Positions 11,549 through 17,965 of a stretch of DNA of 64,000 nt are shown here, piece after piece. The stretch spans positions 124,001 through 188,000 of the forward strand of contig JAGOBF010000002.1 of assembly GCA_017983515.1 (NCBI GenBank), in the 5' to 3' direction. The notes beneath the pieces were generated by a model. That model was given only the letters and a program-made list of their open reading frames with translations, was not told the origin of the DNA and did not search any database. The stretch comes from Promineifilum sp. Its GTDB lineage: Bacteria > Chloroflexota > Anaerolineae > Promineifilales > Promineifilaceae. Position numbers and translations under genes: made by a program. Numbering within the stretch: position 1 is the stretch's first letter; every line of letters starts with the position of its first letter.

Positions 11549-14500
11549 TCAGCTCTCCAAGTGAATGTGCAATTTGCTCAGACTTTTATTCTGGGCCACC
11601 CACTGGCCGACCAGGCCGATCCGCAATTCGTATAGGGATTTGCCCTCCACAGTAACCTCATGCATTACGTCTCGCTCGACCAGCGAATTGAGCGCCTGGG
11701 TGGCGTCGGCCGGGTTTAATTCAATGCTGTAGGTGCGCAGATAGTCGATGATTTCCTCCGGGTGTAGCGGTTCGTTATGATCGATAAGGTGGGCCGCCGC
11801 CGAGAGCACGGCGCGCTCGGCCAGGTTCGAGCGCTGCCACAGATAGGCAAAATGGACTTCACCCAGGCGCAGCATTTCGTCGAGGGCCACGTTGACGTCG
11901 GAGATGGTCACGTAGCCGGTCTTCTGCTGGTTGGCCTGCTTGACCAACGTGTAACAGACCAGTTGCAGGAAATAGGGATGCCCGGCGGTGACGCGCAATA
12001 TTTTGTCTATCGCCAGATCGTCGTAGATTAGATTGGGCGCGACCGGCTCGCATATGAGCCGTTCGGCCGCTTTGGAGCTGAGGAAGTCGATCTTGCGGTA
12101 CAGGGCGATATTGAACAGAACTGACCAGTAATCAGCGCTCATCTCTTCTAGCCGCCGCGTGCCGACGAACACGAACCCCAGGCCACTGCTGTGCTGCATC
12201 AGATGACGCATGTAGGGGAAAAATGTCCGTGGCAGGATGTCGTCGGCCACCATCGATTCGAACGCCTCGAATTCGTCGAACACCATCAACAACGTGGCAT
12301 CCGGAGGCAACAGACGCCGGGCGGCCGGCAGAAATTCGCGCTGGAAGATTCGCGCCGGATCGGCGTTCCAGACATCGATAGGCGGAACCGCCAACTTCAG
12401 CCCCCGCGCTCCCAACGAGTCGGCGATGTGCCAGGCGAATTCCTGGAGCAAGGCGGGCATTCCGGGTGACACGCCCAGAGATTGGCAATCGATATAGATG
12501 GGAATCAGATGTGGCGGCAAATAGTCTTCGAGACGAAGAAGTAGGGATGTCTTGCCCGTGCGCCGCTGGCCCACCAGCATGAAGACGTTGCGCTGGCTGT
12601 GCGTCCCGGCATGTTCGGCGATGAAGTCGAATAGCTCCTCGCGGCCGTAGAACAAGGGATTGTCTTTTCGCAGGGGCGTACCGGGCAGATAGGGATTAAT
12701 GATCGGGGCGAACTCTCTGACGGGCGGCAGCAGATAAACCATATCGCCGAATGCCGCGGTTTTGTCGCGCCGATTGCGGTCATCGTATGTCAGGGACAGA
12801 CCGATCCTGAATCGTTCTTCGGCCTGTGGCTCGATCAGGAATTGCACCTGTCGCGAGTGGCCCGACGGTAAGAACGGTATGACCTGTGGCTCGCTGTGCA
12901 CCAGGTAGGCCGGATTGTCGCTGAGGGCGGCGATGATGTTCTCGGCTGCGGCCCGACCGGTGTTGCGGATTTCCATCGCCACGTGAGTCTGACGCCCGTT
13001 GAGAGCCAGCCGCTTGGTTTTCAAGGAGACGTCTAGCTCTGCGCGACCTCGCTGCTCTTCGATTTCCGCCGTCAATAAACCCGACCATCGGCGGCCGATG
13101 GCCCGCACCAGCGTCCGCTCGACGCTAGGCGAAAACTCGAACAACTGATCCTGAATCTGCCGGAGACGGACGGCCGCCTGAGTCAGATAGGCAAGCCTGT
13201 CGTCAATCGCTTCAACCCGATCGCTATCGCGCATATTGGTCAACACGGGCAATAGCGTATCCAGAATGGGCGACCATTCCTTTCGTTCTTCCAGGACTGT
13301 CAGCATCTTCACGTATTGCGGCCGCACGAGACCCAGTTCGATGATAGACGGCGCTTCGAGCATCGTCTGGCACGTACGATAGATCAGCCGGCGCTGCGAC
13401 AGATTACGCCACACATTTTTGGATGCTGCCAGATCATCCAGCGTGCGCGTGATGATGGGGAGTCCCGCCTGCGGCCTGTTTGCCAGCAAGAACAGGCCGT
13501 CGGAAAGATTCGCCAGCGCGGCATTGCCGGCGCGGCGAGCCTGGTTAGCCAACTGCAACAGGAAATCGGGCGAGCCGCCCACCAGCGTATACTGTTGTTC
13601 GAGCATAGGCAGGGTGCTGGCTGGGGCCTGAGCCAGACGCTTGTAGAATCGGCTGGCCTGGGCGGCCGGCGTTTGTGCCTGTCGCCAATAGGCCAAGAGG
13701 CCGAGGAGGCCCAGAAAGCCGAGCGAGCCGACCAAAACCGGCAAGGTCACGTTGCCGGCCACAGGCGCAACAACGGTCGGCCCCAGCGGAGGCGTCACAT
13801 ACCCGCGATAAAAACCGTCATTAAACCGCAGGCGATAGTTGATGCGCGCCGCGCCGGCCGGCATCGTCACGCCCGACCAAAACAGTTGGCCGTTGCCCGA
13901 GGCGAGCTGCTGCTCGGATATCGGCCGCCAGGCGTCAATCACTTGATCATGCACTTCCAGCTGAACGGCTACCGTGTCGTTTTCCACGTCGTTCACCTGC
14001 ACGCCGACGGAGAATTGCCCTTGGTCCACTTCGAGGGCTGGGTGAGTGAGCAGTGGCGGACGATTTTCTTCTTCACGAAAGAGCCGGATCAAGCCATTCT
14101 GCGTGATCGCTAGCAGATCAGGCGATTGGCGAGAAGTACGCTTGAGAAGAGCCAGGTCAAAGATGCTGCTGGCCAGGGGCAACTGTAGAACCAGCCGGGG
14201 CTCGCGGGTCTGGAGCTGCTCGTACAGCCAGACGTCGCCTTCGCGCGTGCCGAATGAGCCGGTATCCGGCCGGCCGTCCTTATCGAGATCGTCCCAACTC
14301 ACAGCCTCTACATCTCCCAGCTCGTCCAGAGTCCAGGTGATAGCCGGCTGGTTATCGGTGACTACGATCTGCTTCAATTGATCATCCGCCGTGGCTACCA
14401 GAAAGGCGGTTACGTTTTCCTGGAACGCCTCGACCGCGCCCACGTCGGATGGTTCCACCACCAACGGCTGCTCGCCCACCGGGTACGGCCACGCCCATTG

Positions 14501-16522
14501 GGACATCTCGATGCCTCGATGGTTGAAACCGTGCATTTGGCCGTCGTCGGTGAAAACCACCAGACGGACGGACAGCTCCTGGCTGCCGGGCTGCTGGACA
14601 GAATAGACCGCGGAGATGGACGATTCCAGCGTCGCAAAGCTGGAATAGAACACGTCGCCGCTGCTCGGTGAAAGGCGCACAATAGCGTGTTCGCCCACCG
14701 CCAAGACGGCATCCGGATCGCCCGGCGTATGGTTAAACGGGATGAGGCTCTCGATGGCCCCCATCTGTCCGTCGAGGGGCGTCTCCCAAATCTGGTTACC
14801 GTCCAGATTAAAGGCCATGACACTACCTGATTGCGTGCCCAGGAGGATGGTCGACTCCCCTGCACCAACCTGATCGTCGATCAGGAGAGATGTAACCTGG
14901 TTGGGGATGATCGTCTCCCAAAGGCGTTCCCCGGTAGACTCGCGAAGCTCCAGCCAGCTGATGGTCGTCTGACTTTCGGCCGTTTCATCGGCCGGCGGCC
15001 GTTGGCGACGCACCACGGCGATGCGGGGCGACTTTCCCAACGCATAACGCACGCGCCCCAGCTGGGAGATAATTTCGCCGGGGGCGTGGAGCCAGCGAAT
15101 GGTGCGGTCAACGGCCAGAGTGTGGAGGCGGCCATCGCGCGTACCGACGATTATTTCGTCCTCGCCGTCCTCGTCCAGGTCTTGGATGAGCATGGTCGTC
15201 GGCTCGGCGTCGAGGAAGTACTCCCATTCCTGAATATACTCACTACTGCCCACGCCCAGGCCGATCAGTTGCAGTGTGGCAAACCGCGCCAGCAAGAGTT
15301 CGTAATGGTTATCGTTGTTCACGTCTACCAGACGGGTCAATTCAGGTAAGTCCGTGTCATTGAGCTTGGCTAGCGTTTGGCCGTTATTGCCCAGAAGTAG
15401 AACGTCGGCCAGTTCGCTGGCCGTTGCCAGCGGCTCCAAAATGGCCGCCAGCGGCGTCTGGCCGGGCGCGGTGCGGCCGCCGGCCGGGAGCAAGGCCAGC
15501 ACATGCCGGTTAGCGTCTCGGGCCAGATTGTTGGTCCATAATCGTCGCCCCTGCTCGGAATAGGCTGTGACGCTGCCCGCGGCCGTTCCGATGGCCAATG
15601 CCGGCTCGTCGGGCAGCTCCACAGCAGCCAGCGCGGTAATGGGCCGGTTCAGTGTCCGGTACCAGAGCAGCTCGCCCGATGGGGCATAGATATCTACCTG
15701 ACCAAAGTTGGTGCCGACGGCAATCGCTGCGCCCGTCGGGCCGAAAGGGGCCTTGGCCAGGCTGGTAATTCGCCTGGAGATGGCTTGCTGCCAAGCGACG
15801 GCTCCGTTGTCCAAATAGACCAGTTGGCTGAAACGACGGGACGTAAAGATGCCGACGGCGATCTCTTTTTGTCCATCGCCGTCGAAATCATCGACGATGA
15901 GTTGCGGATTTACGCCGCCGCCCGCATCCTCGACGCCGAATTGCCAGACCGGATCACCATTGATATCGAGCGCGATTAATTCGCCCGATGCAAGAAGCAG
16001 CAGAATGTCCTGAATGCCGTCGGTCCCATAGTCGAACGATTCGATTCTGATGGGGGCGCTGGCAACGTCGAGCGGGACGCGCCATTGTTCTTCGCCATTT
16101 TTGTCCAGCATGATGACGTAGTCGGTGCCGGCCAGCACGATCTCCTTGATCGACAATTGCTGCTCGGTGGTGTCCACCGTGCCGATGGCCGTGACACCTT
16201 CCTGGCTGACGTAGGTCCACTCTTCCTTGCCGTCGGCCGCCAGGAGCGTCAAATGTCCATTGCGATCCAGAACGATAAATTCGTCAACCCCGTCGCCGTC
16301 GACGTCGGCCGTCACGATGTTTTCGAGGCGTCCGGACGCGGCGAATTGCCAGTAGCTTTGGGGGCGGGCGGCTCCCTGGGCGGCCACCGGGGCCAGGGTG
16401 ACTACCAGCGCGGCGATGGGCAGCAGGAAGGCAATCCACCACCGTCCGGCAGGTTGCATGGAGCAGCGGATGCATCGACTGATAAGTCCGCGTAGGGAGG
16501 GGGCGAGACGTAGCGCGTTCAA
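11549..16522 (-). CDS. Transmembrane beta-propeller sensor fused to a STAND-type ATPase
   Basis: This 1657-residue protein begins with a signal or anchor segment (about 28-48). Residues 50-830 form a propeller-like region. It has PQQ/WD-type blades, for example GTNFGQVDIYAPSGELLW and GTQSGSVMAFNLDGNQIW, and calcium-loop-like FG-GAP motifs (DVDGDGVDE, DFDGDGQKE, DLDEDGEDE, DLDKDGRPD). An Ig-like stretch leads to one membrane helix (about 925-947). The inner part has a helical region, a CARDB-like domain (about 1160-1260) and a P-loop ATPase with GREELFDFI, LVGQRRTGKTS (about 1310-1320) and Walker B LLMVFDEFEAF (about 1417), ending in a helical tail. It follows the DNA-binding ATPase gene by 23 nt. 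I infer a receptor that couples an outer ligand to ATPase assembly; the ligand and activity are unknown. Confidence 0.85.
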   Translation of the reverse strand: MNALRLAPSLRGLISRCIRCSMQPAGRWWIAFLLPIAALVVTLAPVAAQGAARPQSYWQFAASGRLENIVTADVDGDGVDEFIVLDRNGHLTLLAADGKEEWTYVSQEGVTAIGTVDTTEQQLSIKEIVLAGTDYVIMLDKNGEEQWRVPLDVASAPIRIESFDYGTDGIQDILLLLASGELIALDINGDPVWQFGVEDAGGGVNPQLIVDDFDGDGQKEIAVGIFTSRRFSQLVYLDNGAVAWQQAISRRITSLAKAPFGPTGAAIAVGTNFGQVDIYAPSGELLWYRTLNRPITALAAVELPDEPALAIGTAAGSVTAYSEQGRRLWTNNLARDANRHVLALLPAGGRTAPGQTPLAAILEPLATASELADVLLLGNNGQTLAKLNDTDLPELTRLVDVNNDNHYELLLARFATLQLIGLGVGSSEYIQEWEYFLDAEPTTMLIQDLDEDGEDEIIVGTRDGRLHTLAVDRTIRWLHAPGEIISQLGRVRYALGKSPRIAVVRRQRPPADETAESQTTISWLELRESTGERLWETIIPNQVTSLLIDDQVGAGESTILLGTQSGSVMAFNLDGNQIWETPLDGQMGAIESLIPFNHTPGDPDAVLAVGEHAIVRLSPSSGDVFYSSFATLESSISAVYSVQQPGSQELSVRLVVFTDDGQMHGFNHRGIEMSQWAWPYPVGEQPLVVEPSDVGAVEAFQENVTAFLVATADDQLKQIVVTDNQPAITWTLDELGDVEAVSWDDLDKDGRPDTGSFGTREGDVWLYEQLQTREPRLVLQLPLASSIFDLALLKRTSRQSPDLLAITQNGLIRLFREEENRPPLLTHPALEVDQGQFSVGVQVNDVENDTVAVQLEVHDQVIDAWRPISEQQLASGNGQLFWSGVTMPAGAARINYRLRFNDGFYRGYVTPPLGPTVVAPVAGNVTLPVLVGSLGFLGLLGLLAYWRQAQTPAAQASRFYKRLAQAPASTLPMLEQQYTLVGGSPDFLLQLANQARRAGNAALANLSDGLFLLANRPQAGLPIITRTLDDLAASKNVWRNLSQRRLIYRTCQTMLEAPSIIELGLVRPQYVKMLTVLEERKEWSPILDTLLPVLTNMRDSDRVEAIDDRLAYLTQAAVRLRQIQDQLFEFSPSVERTLVRAIGRRWSGLLTAEIEEQRGRAELDVSLKTKRLALNGRQTHVAMEIRNTGRAAAENIIAALSDNPAYLVHSEPQVIPFLPSGHSRQVQFLIEPQAEERFRIGLSLTYDDRNRRDKTAAFGDMVYLLPPVREFAPIINPYLPGTPLRKDNPLFYGREELFDFIAEHAGTHSQRNVFMLVGQRRTGKTSLLLRLEDYLPPHLIPIYIDCQSLGVSPGMPALLQEFAWHIADSLGARGLKLAVPPIDVWNADPARIFQREFLPAARRLLPPDATLLMVFDEFEAFESMVADDILPRTFFPYMRHLMQHSSGLGFVFVGTRRLEEMSADYWSVLFNIALYRKIDFLSSKAAERLICEPVAPNLIYDDLAIDKILRVTAGHPYFLQLVCYTLVKQANQQKTGYVTISDVNVALDEMLRLGEVHFAYLWQRSNLAERAVLSAAAHLIDHNEPLHPEEIIDYLRTYSIELNPADATQALNSLVERDVMHEVTVEGKSLYELRIGLVGQWVAQNKSLSKLHIHLES

Positions 16523-16545
16523 TTTAGTGGCGGCGAACGGCCGAC

Positions 16546-17877
16546 CTATTCTTCGGGTTGGCGCAGGGCATAACCCACGCCGCGCTCGCTAATGATCCAG
16601 TTTCCGAACGGATCGACAGCCCGCCGCAGGCGTTTGATCAACGTTTTCAGCCTGTCCGGATCATCCACCAGTACATCACCCCAAACCGCCATCTCGAGGT
16701 CTTCGCCGCGCACGACTTGCCCGACGTGCCGGCACAGTCGCACCAGGATGCTAAATTGCGAAGTCGTCAGACTGAGTTCCCGACTGTTGCCCCATACCTG
16801 ATGCCGCTGTTCGTCGATTACGAAGGGGCCGGCTTGTATCAGGCCGGGAACCTCTTGACGGCGCACGAAACGCCGTAGAATTTCGCTGCTGTATACGTAA
16901 GTGTTATCCACCTTTTCCAGCAGACATTGTTGTTCCAGTTGTCGCAGGCTTTCTATTGGCCCGTCGGCAATGGCCAGTACGTGTTGATCTTCCGGCGACA
17001 AATTCTGCCAGAGATAGCCCAGATGGGATTCAGCCTCGACCTCTATAGGGCCGTCCAATACCTGGAAATCGGCCTCCGTGTACCGGTCGAGAGAGGCATT
17101 GATCTCACCGTTGTTAATGGCCTGGATGGCATGATAGCCGGCGATGTGGAGGAAAAACGGGTGCAGTCCGACAAGCTCGATCAGATAAGCTATTAATTCG
17201 GGCGGCAGGGTCTGATTCGTTCGATCCAGTCGCCGGCGAAATAGCTCCTGGGCTTCGGCCTCGGTGAAAAGACCCAGCGGCATGGTGACGAAAATATTGA
17301 AAAACGGGGAACTGAGGACGGTCTCTTCGGCGGTGATAGCGAACAGTGGTCTCTGGCTAGCCGTCAGATAGGCCAGTCCGTACTTCGTCGTGAGACCGCG
17401 CAGGCGAGCAAAGAAATAGGGTGTCAGGTGTTGATTGGCGGCTAGCAGCTCGAACTCATCGAGCAGCACGACGACGCTGGAGCCTTGCTGGTAGATTTGC
17501 TGCAGGGCGCGGTCGAGGGCGCGATACGTCCCCGGCTGCTCGGCCGCGTCGACGGTGAGGTTGGCCTGACTCGCTGCGTCCAGTAGCCCATCGAGTAGCA
17601 ATTCGTAGACTTCTTCCGGCGGCGAGCCGGCAAGCTCCTGGCAATCGAGCAAGACAAAAAGGCTACGGGGTGGATCCAGTTGAAAGGAGGCACGAACCGA
17701 CGCATTGCCGATATACAGGAGCAGAGAGCTTTTTCCGATGCGACGGGGACCGATTAGTGAGATGCTCTGGCCGTTGCGCAACAGGCCCAGCATTTGTGCT
17801 AACTCCGCTTCGCGGCCGACAAAGTCTTCAACGTGACGAATCGCACCACGATGGAAAAAAGGATTGTCTACACCCAT
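16546..17877 (-). CDS. STAND-type ATPase fused to an OmpR-like winged-helix regulator
   Basis: The 443-residue protein starts with HVEDFVGREAELAQML and a P-loop SLIGPRRIGKSS (residues 40-51). Walker B is SVVVLLDEFELLA, and LTASQRPLFA fits the sensor strand of AAA_16/STAND proteins. The last about 95 residues form an OmpR/PhoB-type DNA-binding domain (ELSLTTSQFSILVRL, DRLKTLIKRLRRAVD, ISERGVGYAL). It lacks a receiver domain, so it looks like a nucleotide-switched one-component activator, as in the SARP/STAND class. Its ATPase resembles that of the next gene, 23 nt downstream, so the two probably act together. A TACAAT 10 nt before the ATG suggests a very short or absent leader. Confidence 0.88.
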   Translation of the reverse strand: MGVDNPFFHRGAIRHVEDFVGREAELAQMLGLLRNGQSISLIGPRRIGKSSLLLYIGNASVRASFQLDPPRSLFVLLDCQELAGSPPEEVYELLLDGLLDAASQANLTVDAAEQPGTYRALDRALQQIYQQGSSVVVLLDEFELLAANQHLTPYFFARLRGLTTKYGLAYLTASQRPLFAITAEETVLSSPFFNIFVTMPLGLFTEAEAQELFRRRLDRTNQTLPPELIAYLIELVGLHPFFLHIAGYHAIQAINNGEINASLDRYTEADFQVLDGPIEVEAESHLGYLWQNLSPEDQHVLAIADGPIESLRQLEQQCLLEKVDNTYVYSSEILRRFVRRQEVPGLIQAGPFVIDEQRHQVWGNSRELSLTTSQFSILVRLCRHVGQVVRGEDLEMAVWGDVLVDDPDRLKTLIKRLRRAVDPFGNWIISERGVGYALRQPEE

Positions 17878-17887
17878 AGTGCGCCCT

Positions 17888-17893
17888 ATTGTA
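17888..17893 (-). promoter_or_regulatory. -10 element of the STAND operon
   Basis: TACAAT on the minus strand lies 10 nt before the ATG at 17877 with no ribosome site between them. No convincing -35 is seen. The operon may be autoregulated through the winged helix, but I find no clear operator repeat here. Confidence 0.4.
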
Positions 17894-17965
17894 ATGCCGA
17901 ATGGCTTTAAAAGGTAATAGCCCGCCCGCCGGTGCGGCCGGCTATCATTCGCACCGTCCGGCGAC

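What the first reader, a model, noticed from the sequence alone, without database searches (positions are those of the whole stretch)
11549..17877. Two-gene STAND system: surface beta-propeller receptor plus STAND winged-helix regulator
The downstream gene codes for one 1657-residue chain with an outer PQQ/FG-GAP propeller, one membrane helix and an inner P-loop ATPase. The upstream gene codes for a similar ATPase fused to an OmpR-like DNA-binding domain. The genes are 23 nt apart on the same strand. Two related switch ATPases, one facing an outside ligand and one able to bind DNA, suggest ligand-driven assembly that ends in transcription. This is not a two-component system, since no kinase or receiver domain is present. 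The sequence shows the domains; the signalling route is inference.
Basis: partly seen in the sequence, partly recalled or inferred. Interest (0 to 1): 0.78.

Follow-up and report, generated by a model that had tools for sequence, protein, structure and literature searches.

The report
Paired switch ATPases: receptor and regulator
Two neighbouring bacterial genes encode related ATP-binding switch proteins, one predicted to sit in the membrane with an outside propeller-shaped sensor and the other carrying a domain of a DNA-binding family; pairs of the same two kinds recur in scattered members of the bacterium's phylum with other sensors and outputs attached, so they likely form a little-studied signalling relay that would turn signals into gene control.

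Summary
Gene A (16546-17877, -) encodes an nSTAND2-type ATPase fused to an OmpR/PhoB winged helix. Gene B (11549-16522, -), 23 nt downstream, encodes a signal segment, an FG-GAP/PQQ propeller, one transmembrane helix and a second ATPase of the same superfamily (profile comparison E 1.5e-45; both match archaeal ATPase 2qen best). In the window's family A is found in 48 of 52 genomes and lies directly before B in 40 of 46 testable ones. The new point is wider: A-class and B-class ATPases are two sister groups that recur as neighbours in Chloroflexota. Outputs on A vary (winged helix, Ser/Thr kinase, EAD7, BTAD), as do the parts on B (propeller-TM, multi-TM, GAF, TPR, FGE, RelA/SpoT, TCAD9). Of 300 phylum genomes 17 have both classes, 1.4 expected; partner trees mirror each other (r 0.80-0.92). 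A published two-gene nSTAND2 'conflict' operon is the closest precedent, but there one partner is inactive; here both keep their Walker motifs. Hetero-assembly and signal direction are inferred; no operator or ligand was found. New variant of a known kind.

The parts
16546..17877 (-). Gene A, 443 aa: output STAND, nSTAND2-type ATPase plus OmpR/PhoB winged helix
   Evidence: ORF; Pfam; AF2 mean pLDDT 91.3
16843..17877 (-). A ATPase module (residues 1-345) with its own winged-helix-like end
17725..17751 (-). A Walker A, GPRRIGKSS (residues 43-51)
   Evidence: sequence; Lys in 35 of 35 rows of A1
17449..17469 (-). A Walker B, VLLDEFE (residues 137-143)
   Evidence: sequence; Asp 35 of 35, Glu 34 of 35 rows of A1
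16549..16842 (-). A winged-helix DNA-binding domain (residues 346-443)
16618..16659 (-). A recognition helix (residues 407-420)
   Evidence: mean majority identity 0.988 in 46 rows
11549..16522 (-). Gene B, 1657 aa: input STAND, membrane receptor-like
   Evidence: ORF; Pfam; 23 nt after A
16379..16435 (-). B N-terminal hydrophobic segment (residues 30-48), signal peptide or anchor
   Evidence: hydropathy; N-terminal core in 40 of 42 rows
14027..16372 (-). B PQQ/FG-GAP beta-propeller region (residues 51-832), predicted extracytoplasmic
   Evidence: PQQ_2, Beta-prop_CGLA, FG-GAP_3; five DxDxDG-type loops; not folded
13778..14026 (-). B Ig-like region (residues 833-915); the name is from sequence appearance, not tested
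   Evidence: stretch between propeller and TM helix
13718..13774 (-). B transmembrane helix (residues 917-935)
   Evidence: position and charge bias kept in 42 of 42 rows
13043..13690 (-). B cytoplasmic helical region (residues 945-1160)
   Evidence: AF2 (mean pLDDT 86.4, pTM 0.68)
12713..13042 (-). B beta-sandwich (residues 1161-1270), weak CARDB match
   Evidence: AF2; CARDB 16.0 bits, under its 22.7 cut-off
11552..12700 (-). B ATPase plus winged-helix end (residues 1275-1657)
17888..17917 (-). Promoter-like TTACCT-18-TACAAT, 10 nt before the A start codon
   Evidence: sequence; TANAAT 2-11 nt before the start in 35 of 45 family rows, control windows 19 of 893

Best explanation
Gene B encodes a predicted single-pass membrane receptor whose cytoplasmic STAND ATPase likely partners the STAND ATPase of the neighbouring gene A, so that a signal sensed by B's outside propeller would switch A's OmpR-type winged helix and thereby control transcription. 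Shown: domain make-up, conserved linkage, common ancestry of the two ATPase domains, intact Walker motifs in both partners, co-diversification of partners, and different appended domains in sister pairs. Inferred: that the two ATPases form a hetero-oligomer, that the propeller binds a ligand or senses the cell surface, that ATP/ADP exchange carries the signal, and that the output is gene activation. In this reading A is the output half and B the input half of a two-protein STAND relay; sister pairs would use the same relay for a kinase, an EAD7 adaptor or a BTAD activator.
For: Domains and topology. A in 48 of 52 family genomes; directly upstream of B in 40 of 46 testable. A and B profiles match each other at E 1.5e-45. 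A-class and B-class ATPases are two groups: bipartition support 1.0 with 2 of 118 rows misplaced; holding the 37 A rows together gives a better likelihood, p-AU 0.73. Twelve hand-picked genomes, most already known to hold a pair: 25 of 44 A-class and 26 of 39 B-class places have a partner within 8 kb, all on one strand; among the stronger places (cut-offs set afterwards) 23 of 33 A (120 bits) and 23 of 27 B (200 bits); roughly 0.5 of 44 expected by chance. 300 phylum genomes drawn by the tool: B-class in 21, A-class in 20, both in 17, expected 1.4, p 2.9e-21. Partner trees: r 0.92 (59 pairs) and 0.88 (41 pairs), 0 of 2000 shuffles as high; r 0.80 (25 diverged pairs), 0 of 5000; partner swaps within a genome, 0 of 5000. 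Similar input with different output: multi-TM with GAF goes with a winged helix (L123, L174) or a kinase (L126, L175), GAF under its cut-off in L174; output labels change 7 times on the B rows of a quick tree, 3 being the minimum for four labels. Majority identity 0.75 in the B ATPase against 0.48 in the propeller, as expected for a variable sensor on a constant switch.
Against: A and B orthologues are not adjacent in 6 of 46 testable genomes (G031, G060-G064). G007, G009, G028 and G068 have B but no A orthologue found (78-83% complete; in G028 B lies inside a contig). Unpaired members are common: 19 of 44 A-class and 13 of 39 B-class; 6 of 26 A rows and 9 of 29 B rows. Co-inheritance of adjacent genes can come from joint duplication without physical contact, and the mirror-tree pairs were chosen because they are adjacent. 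No complex was predicted, no operator found, no ligand known. Many A partners (L142, L151, L156, L171, L172, L176, L178) have no recognised output domain and L144 has two TM helices instead. Some parts on B (RelA/SpoT, NUDIX, FGE) are enzyme-type domains that could be outputs rather than inputs.
Confidence: 0.55

Rival explanations
1. B sequesters A at the membrane: without signal, B holds A inactive, and signal releases A, which then self-assembles and binds DNA alone, much as MalT is held by its inhibitors (recalled).
Against: Does not require B to keep an intact ATPase, yet Walker Lys and Asp are kept in 34 of 34 B rows; output domains such as kinases and EAD7 need no release step.
Confidence: 0.2
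2. A defence (counter-invader) system: the pair is a chromosomal form of the published two-gene nSTAND2 conflict operon and its output is an anti-phage response.
For: A is in PF20702, nSTAND2, and the one relevant paper found for that name describes a two-gene conflict operon. Sister pairs carry EAD7, TCAD9, FGE and TPR parts known from conflict systems.
Against: No eroded partner, no GT4 or HEPN effector. A in 48 of 52 family genomes with recurrent SixA (19 of 38) and UvrD-like helicase (14 of 38) neighbours, so not mobile there. PADLOC gives no match for B and two weak ones for A (E 0.0019 and 0.012). Output is a DNA-binding domain with a near-invariant recognition helix.
Confidence: 0.12
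3. No functional pair: two separately acting genes kept together only by conserved gene order and joint duplication.
For: Six genomes keep both genes apart; joint duplication would also give mirrored trees; many A-class and B-class places lack a near partner.
Against: Pairs occur as A then B, B then A, and divergently, so the association survives rearrangement; both classes in 17 of 300 genomes against 1.4 expected; exchanging partners within genomes lowered tree agreement in 5000 of 5000 trials.
Confidence: 0.08

Closest known systems
Two-gene nSTAND2 system (Kaur et al. 2021, eLife 10:e70394, PMC8195603, section 15 and Fig. 6C legend)
   Same: Two adjacent genes each with a STAND ATPase, proposed there to form a hetero-multimer; variable domains appended; A belongs to the same Pfam family nSTAND2.
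   Different: There one partner has eroded NTP motifs and carries GT4 or HEPN effectors, and the operon is called mobile. Here both partners keep Walker motifs, the window pair has a membrane propeller receptor and a winged-helix regulator, and it is vertically conserved in its family.
Archaeal ATPase_2 / SSO1545-PABY2304 ATPases (2fna, 2qen)
   Different: Chains of about 350 residues, without the propeller of B or the OmpR-type domain of A.
OmpR/PhoB response regulators and two-component systems
   Same: Sensor on one membrane protein, DNA-binding OmpR-type domain on a second protein, genes adjacent.
   Different: No histidine kinase, no receiver; related ATPases stand where those domains would be.
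MalT, AfsR/SARP and other single-chain STAND regulators (recalled)
   Same: STAND ATPase controlling a DNA-binding domain; two sister A proteins carry BTAD, a domain of such activators.
   Different: Sensor and DNA-binding domain are on one chain there, on two chains here.

Membership tests
nSTAND2 two-gene system (Kaur 2021) | both genes encode nSTAND2-type ATPases | tested here: inconclusive
   A 55.2 bits (cut-off 24); B only 14.8 bits, though A and B profiles match at E 1.5e-45
nSTAND2 two-gene system (Kaur 2021) | one partner has eroded NTP-binding motifs | tested here: not met
   Walker A Lys 35 of 35 (A) and 34 of 34 (B); Walker B Asp 35 of 35 and 34 of 34
nSTAND2 two-gene system (Kaur 2021) | GT4 or HEPN effector | tested here: not met
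   none listed for either window protein at E up to 1 (one search showed 25 of 32 families for A)
nSTAND2 two-gene system (Kaur 2021) | mobile operon | tested here: not met
   for the window pair: A in 48 of 52 family genomes, SixA next to B in 19 of 38 loci, helicase next to A in 14 of 38; sister pairs not tested
nSTAND2 two-gene system (Kaur 2021) | conserved arginine finger in both partners | tested here: inconclusive
   an LR arginine is invariant in 57 A rows and in 51 B rows; its position across an interface could not be measured
STAND / ATPase_2-like P-loop ATPases | P-loop ATPase with Walker A and B, HP motif and winged-helix end | tested here: met
   motifs; folds; Pfam ATPase_2 itself reached only 23.5 bits for A (cut-off 33.2)
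OmpR/PhoB DNA-binding domain | Trans_reg_C winged helix with recognition helix | tested here: met
   Pfam E 3.2e-13; PhoP 1.6 A over 97 residues
Two-component system | histidine kinase and receiver domains | tested here: not met
   no such Pfam match in either protein; the 25 response-regulator matches shown all start at residue 332 or later, in the DNA-binding part
Single-chain STAND regulator (MalT/AfsR type) | sensor and DNA-binding domain on one chain | tested here: not met
   propeller on B, winged helix on A

The most novel reading that the evidence does not exclude
The pair belongs to a general bacterial signalling paradigm for which I found no name, a two-component STAND relay: an input STAND (B-class) and an output STAND (A-class), both ATP-binding, co-inherited as a matched couple while their sensors (propeller, multi-TM/GAF, TPR, FGE, RelA/SpoT) and outputs (winged helix, BTAD, Ser/Thr kinase, EAD7) are exchanged, in parallel to histidine kinase and response regulator but with hetero-oligomeric ATPase assembly in place of phosphotransfer.
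Probability: 0.4. Interest if true: 0.85.

Novelty: new variant of a known kind. Interest (0 to 1): 0.62.

Why it matters
If the relay is real, Chloroflexota carry a modular signalling system in which two related ATPases replace kinase and receiver, and in which NLR/apoptosome-like assembly serves ordinary gene control as well as defence. It gives directly testable couples (two soluble ATPase modules of about 340-385 residues) and would turn proteins annotated only as 'AAA family ATPase' or 'winged helix-turn-helix domain-containing protein' into matched sensor and output pairs.

Tried and rejected
Operator search: upstream regions of A in 45 family rows share a TANAAT element 2-11 nt before the start codon (35 of 45) and, read by eye, an upstream TTACC-like block in many. 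This fits a vegetative promoter of a leaderless transcript, not an operator. I looked for direct repeats only by eye and saw none that I would offer as an OmpR-type site, so no regulon is proposed. Tandem 7-9 nt repeats upstream of A in some relatives were judged simple repeats, untested.

Defence system as the main reading was set aside: PADLOC hits are weak, the pair is vertical in its family, both ATPases are intact.

The related-loci scan gave only 5 loci, used for organism names alone (Promineifilum sp., Anaerolineae, Ardenticatenia, Chloroflexi MAGs).

Two structure jobs went to A and to B residues 945-1657; the propeller was not folded, and the viral library was not searched. VIA-align for B covered mainly 328-713 of the model, so the helical and beta-sandwich parts were hardly tested.

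Literature searches listed no paper that, by title and opening of abstract, is on a receptor-STAND plus regulator-STAND pair; the library holds open-licence papers only. PMC8195603: one section read in full plus passages. PMC7159879 and PMC10907252: passages only. Others: search listings only.

Selection caveats: profiles A1 and A2 were built from adjacent pairs (35 of 38 and 34 of 36 candidates; L129, L132 and, for A, L136 dropped). L126-L145 were fetched mostly because both search lists had hits there, so they prove no rate. The 12 genomes were hand-picked, most already known to hold a pair, and some of their pairs are in A1 and A2; the 300 genomes were drawn by the tool (own genome always in), with only the best 6-7 candidates per genome scored, and I take both calls to use the same draw. 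Mirror trees used 59 of 76 pairs (family orthologues thinned). The tree used 73 rows, picked by hand from 35 loci, out of 87 pairs; it is a quick tree with 27 of 70 inner branches weak. The fold alignments took 51 of 53 B stretches and 57 chosen rows for A. In one search, output labels for L152, L153, L160 and L179 were corrected by hand from Pfam (EAD7 in L152 and L153 is under its cut-off), and input labels were set by hand; some (for example L128-L133, L135, L140, L141, L161) rest on a close relative's Pfam result or on hydropathy.
Full report
What is there. Two ORFs lie on the minus strand, A (16546-17877, 443 aa) and B (11549-16522, 1657 aa), 23 nt apart. Pfam finds nSTAND2 (8.8e-15) and Trans_reg_C (3.2e-13) in A; PQQ_2, FG-GAP_3, AAA_22 and, just under its cut-off, AAA_16 in B. 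B has an N-terminal hydrophobic core and one further hydrophobic segment at 917-935; in 42 of 42 aligned family rows that segment is kept with the more positive side towards the ATPase, and 40 of 42 have the N-terminal core. The propeller is therefore predicted to be outside and the ATPase inside.

Conservation of the pair. In the window's family (52 genomes searched) 48 genomes have an A orthologue; G007, G009, G028 and G068 have B but no A found. Two A genes lie at contig ends (G003, G017); of 46 testable, 40 have B directly downstream on the same strand (gap -167 to +169 nt by longest-ORF starts) and 6 do not (G031, G060-G064). Beyond the family, A with a winged helix next to a B is seen in G107, G317, G168 and G327, but G246 has A without B in the 14 kb fetched. 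Named relatives are Promineifilum and other Anaerolineae/Ardenticatenia MAGs. SixA lies convergently after B in 19 of 38 loci and a UvrD-like helicase (my reading of its sequence) before A in 14 of 38, some loci being cut by contig ends: a housekeeping setting. Mean majority identity is 0.48 in the propeller, 0.26 in the TM helix and 0.75 in the B ATPase (42 rows), and 0.988 in the A recognition helix (46 rows).

The wider module. Searching with each protein showed other places where an A-like and a B-like ATPase lie side by side. Pfam on a choice of these gives, on the A side, Trans_reg_C, Ser/Thr Pkinase, EAD7 (under its cut-off in L152 and L153), BTAD or nothing recognised; on the B side, FG-GAP propeller with TM, propeller without a strong TM, PD40 or Reg_prop propeller, multi-TM, multi-TM with GAF, TPR with TM (weak LamG), TPR with FGE, HEAT, TCAD9 with NUDIX, or a RelA/SpoT-like part (HD under its cut-off in L160). 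Where A carries a recognised extra domain it is of output type; most B extras are of sensor type, but RelA/SpoT, NUDIX and FGE are enzyme-type domains whose role as inputs is assumed. Counts of combinations among 87 pairs are.

How strong is the pairing? In 12 hand-picked genomes searched with profiles A1 and A2 I assigned 44 A-class and 39 B-class places. 25 of 44 A and 26 of 39 B have a partner within 8 kb, all on one strand; with cut-offs set after seeing the list, 23 of 33 A at 120 bits or more and 23 of 27 B at 200 bits or more. About 0.5 would be expected by chance. G048, unpaired at that cut-off, has a weak A-class neighbour. In 300 phylum genomes drawn by the tool B-class passes 1e-70 in 21, A-class passes 1e-50 in 20, and 17 have both (expected 1.4, p 2.9e-21; near relatives are not independent, so the p is only indicative). 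The module is thus patchy: 276 of the 300 have neither at these cut-offs. By my reading of those lists 20 of 26 A rows and 20 of 29 B rows have a partner within 8 kb; in one family (f74) the pair is divergently transcribed (confirmed in 4 fetched loci).

Common history of partners. In a joint tree of 59 pairs the A|B split has support 1.0 with two misplaced A rows, L164 and L165. In a mixture-model quick tree of 73 rows (37 A, 36 B) the free search needed 2 changes, but holding the A rows together gave a log-likelihood 14.9 higher (p-AU 0.73). Distances in the A tree and the B tree correlate: r 0.92 for 59 pairs and 0.88 for the 41 pairs other than family orthologues (0 of 2000 shuffles as high), 0.80 for 25 diverged pairs (0 of 5000). 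When partners are exchanged only within a genome (34 pairs, 13 genomes) 0 of 5000 exchanges reach the observed r 0.868; within G317 (7 pairs) 13 of 5040 permutations do, the true one included. On that quick tree outputs change 7 times on the B side where 3 would suffice: the couple is inherited, the outputs are exchanged.

Mechanism. The most economical account is that B's ATPase is the receptor-facing half and A's the output half of one assembly: signal at the propeller changes B through the TM helix and helical stalk, B and A associate through the ATPase modules, and A's winged helix then binds DNA. Only the anatomy, linkage and co-evolution are shown; assembly, ligand, nucleotide cycle and target genes are inferred. 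A is probably transcribed from a leaderless-type promoter (TANAAT 2-11 nt before the start in 35 of 45 rows against 19 of 893 control windows).

What is known. Kaur et al. 2021 (PMC8195603, section 15 read) describe a mobile two-gene operon of two nSTAND2 ATPases, argue for a hetero-multimer, and note that one partner has lost its NTP motifs and carries GT4 or HEPN effectors. The present pairs share the two-gene STAND idea, but the window pair fails the inactive-partner, effector and mobility features, so I do not file it as a member; it works, in my reading, like an active-active variant wired to a membrane sensor and transcription. No paper that is on such a pair by title and opening of abstract was listed.

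Verdict. The stronger finding is a recurrent two-STAND couple with exchangeable parts in Chloroflexota, of which this gene pair is the membrane-propeller and winged-helix form.

Noticed in passing
L160:1022-5969 (own genus, G001) and L159:2716-7486 (G062): A RelA/SpoT-like part (RelA_SpoT and TGS in both; HD_4 strong in L159, under its cut-off in L160; ACT in L159) fused to a B-class STAND ATPase, next to an A-class STAND with Trans_reg_C: a possible alarmone-enzyme link to the same kind of relay.
   Followed up: partly
L124:5099-7752 (window's own genome, contig C1): A second STAND pair in the same genome: A-class ATPase with an unrecognised C-terminal part and a bare B-class ATPase.
   Followed up: partly
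L157:3024-7502 and L158:3146-7540: A-class STAND with a BTAD (SARP-type) activator domain, paired with a B-class protein whose first 550 or so residues gave no Pfam match at E 0.001.
   Followed up: partly
L139, L140, L141, L162: B-class STAND with TCAD9 and NUDIX (Pfam run on L139 and L162; L140 and L141 by resemblance) paired with an A-class EAD7 protein.
   Followed up: no
window 17888-17917 (-): Promoter-like element whose -10 lies 10 nt before the A start codon; the same kind of arrangement in 35 of 45 family rows suggests a leaderless transcript.
   Followed up: partly
L171, L172, L173, L180 (family f74): Pair in divergent orientation, with a large B that shows no strong TM segment; propeller found by Pfam in the two B proteins scanned, L171 and L172.
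   Followed up: partly
L166:5685-7250 (window's own genome, contig C14): An A-class STAND with EAD7 and no B-class partner within the stretch fetched.
   Followed up: no
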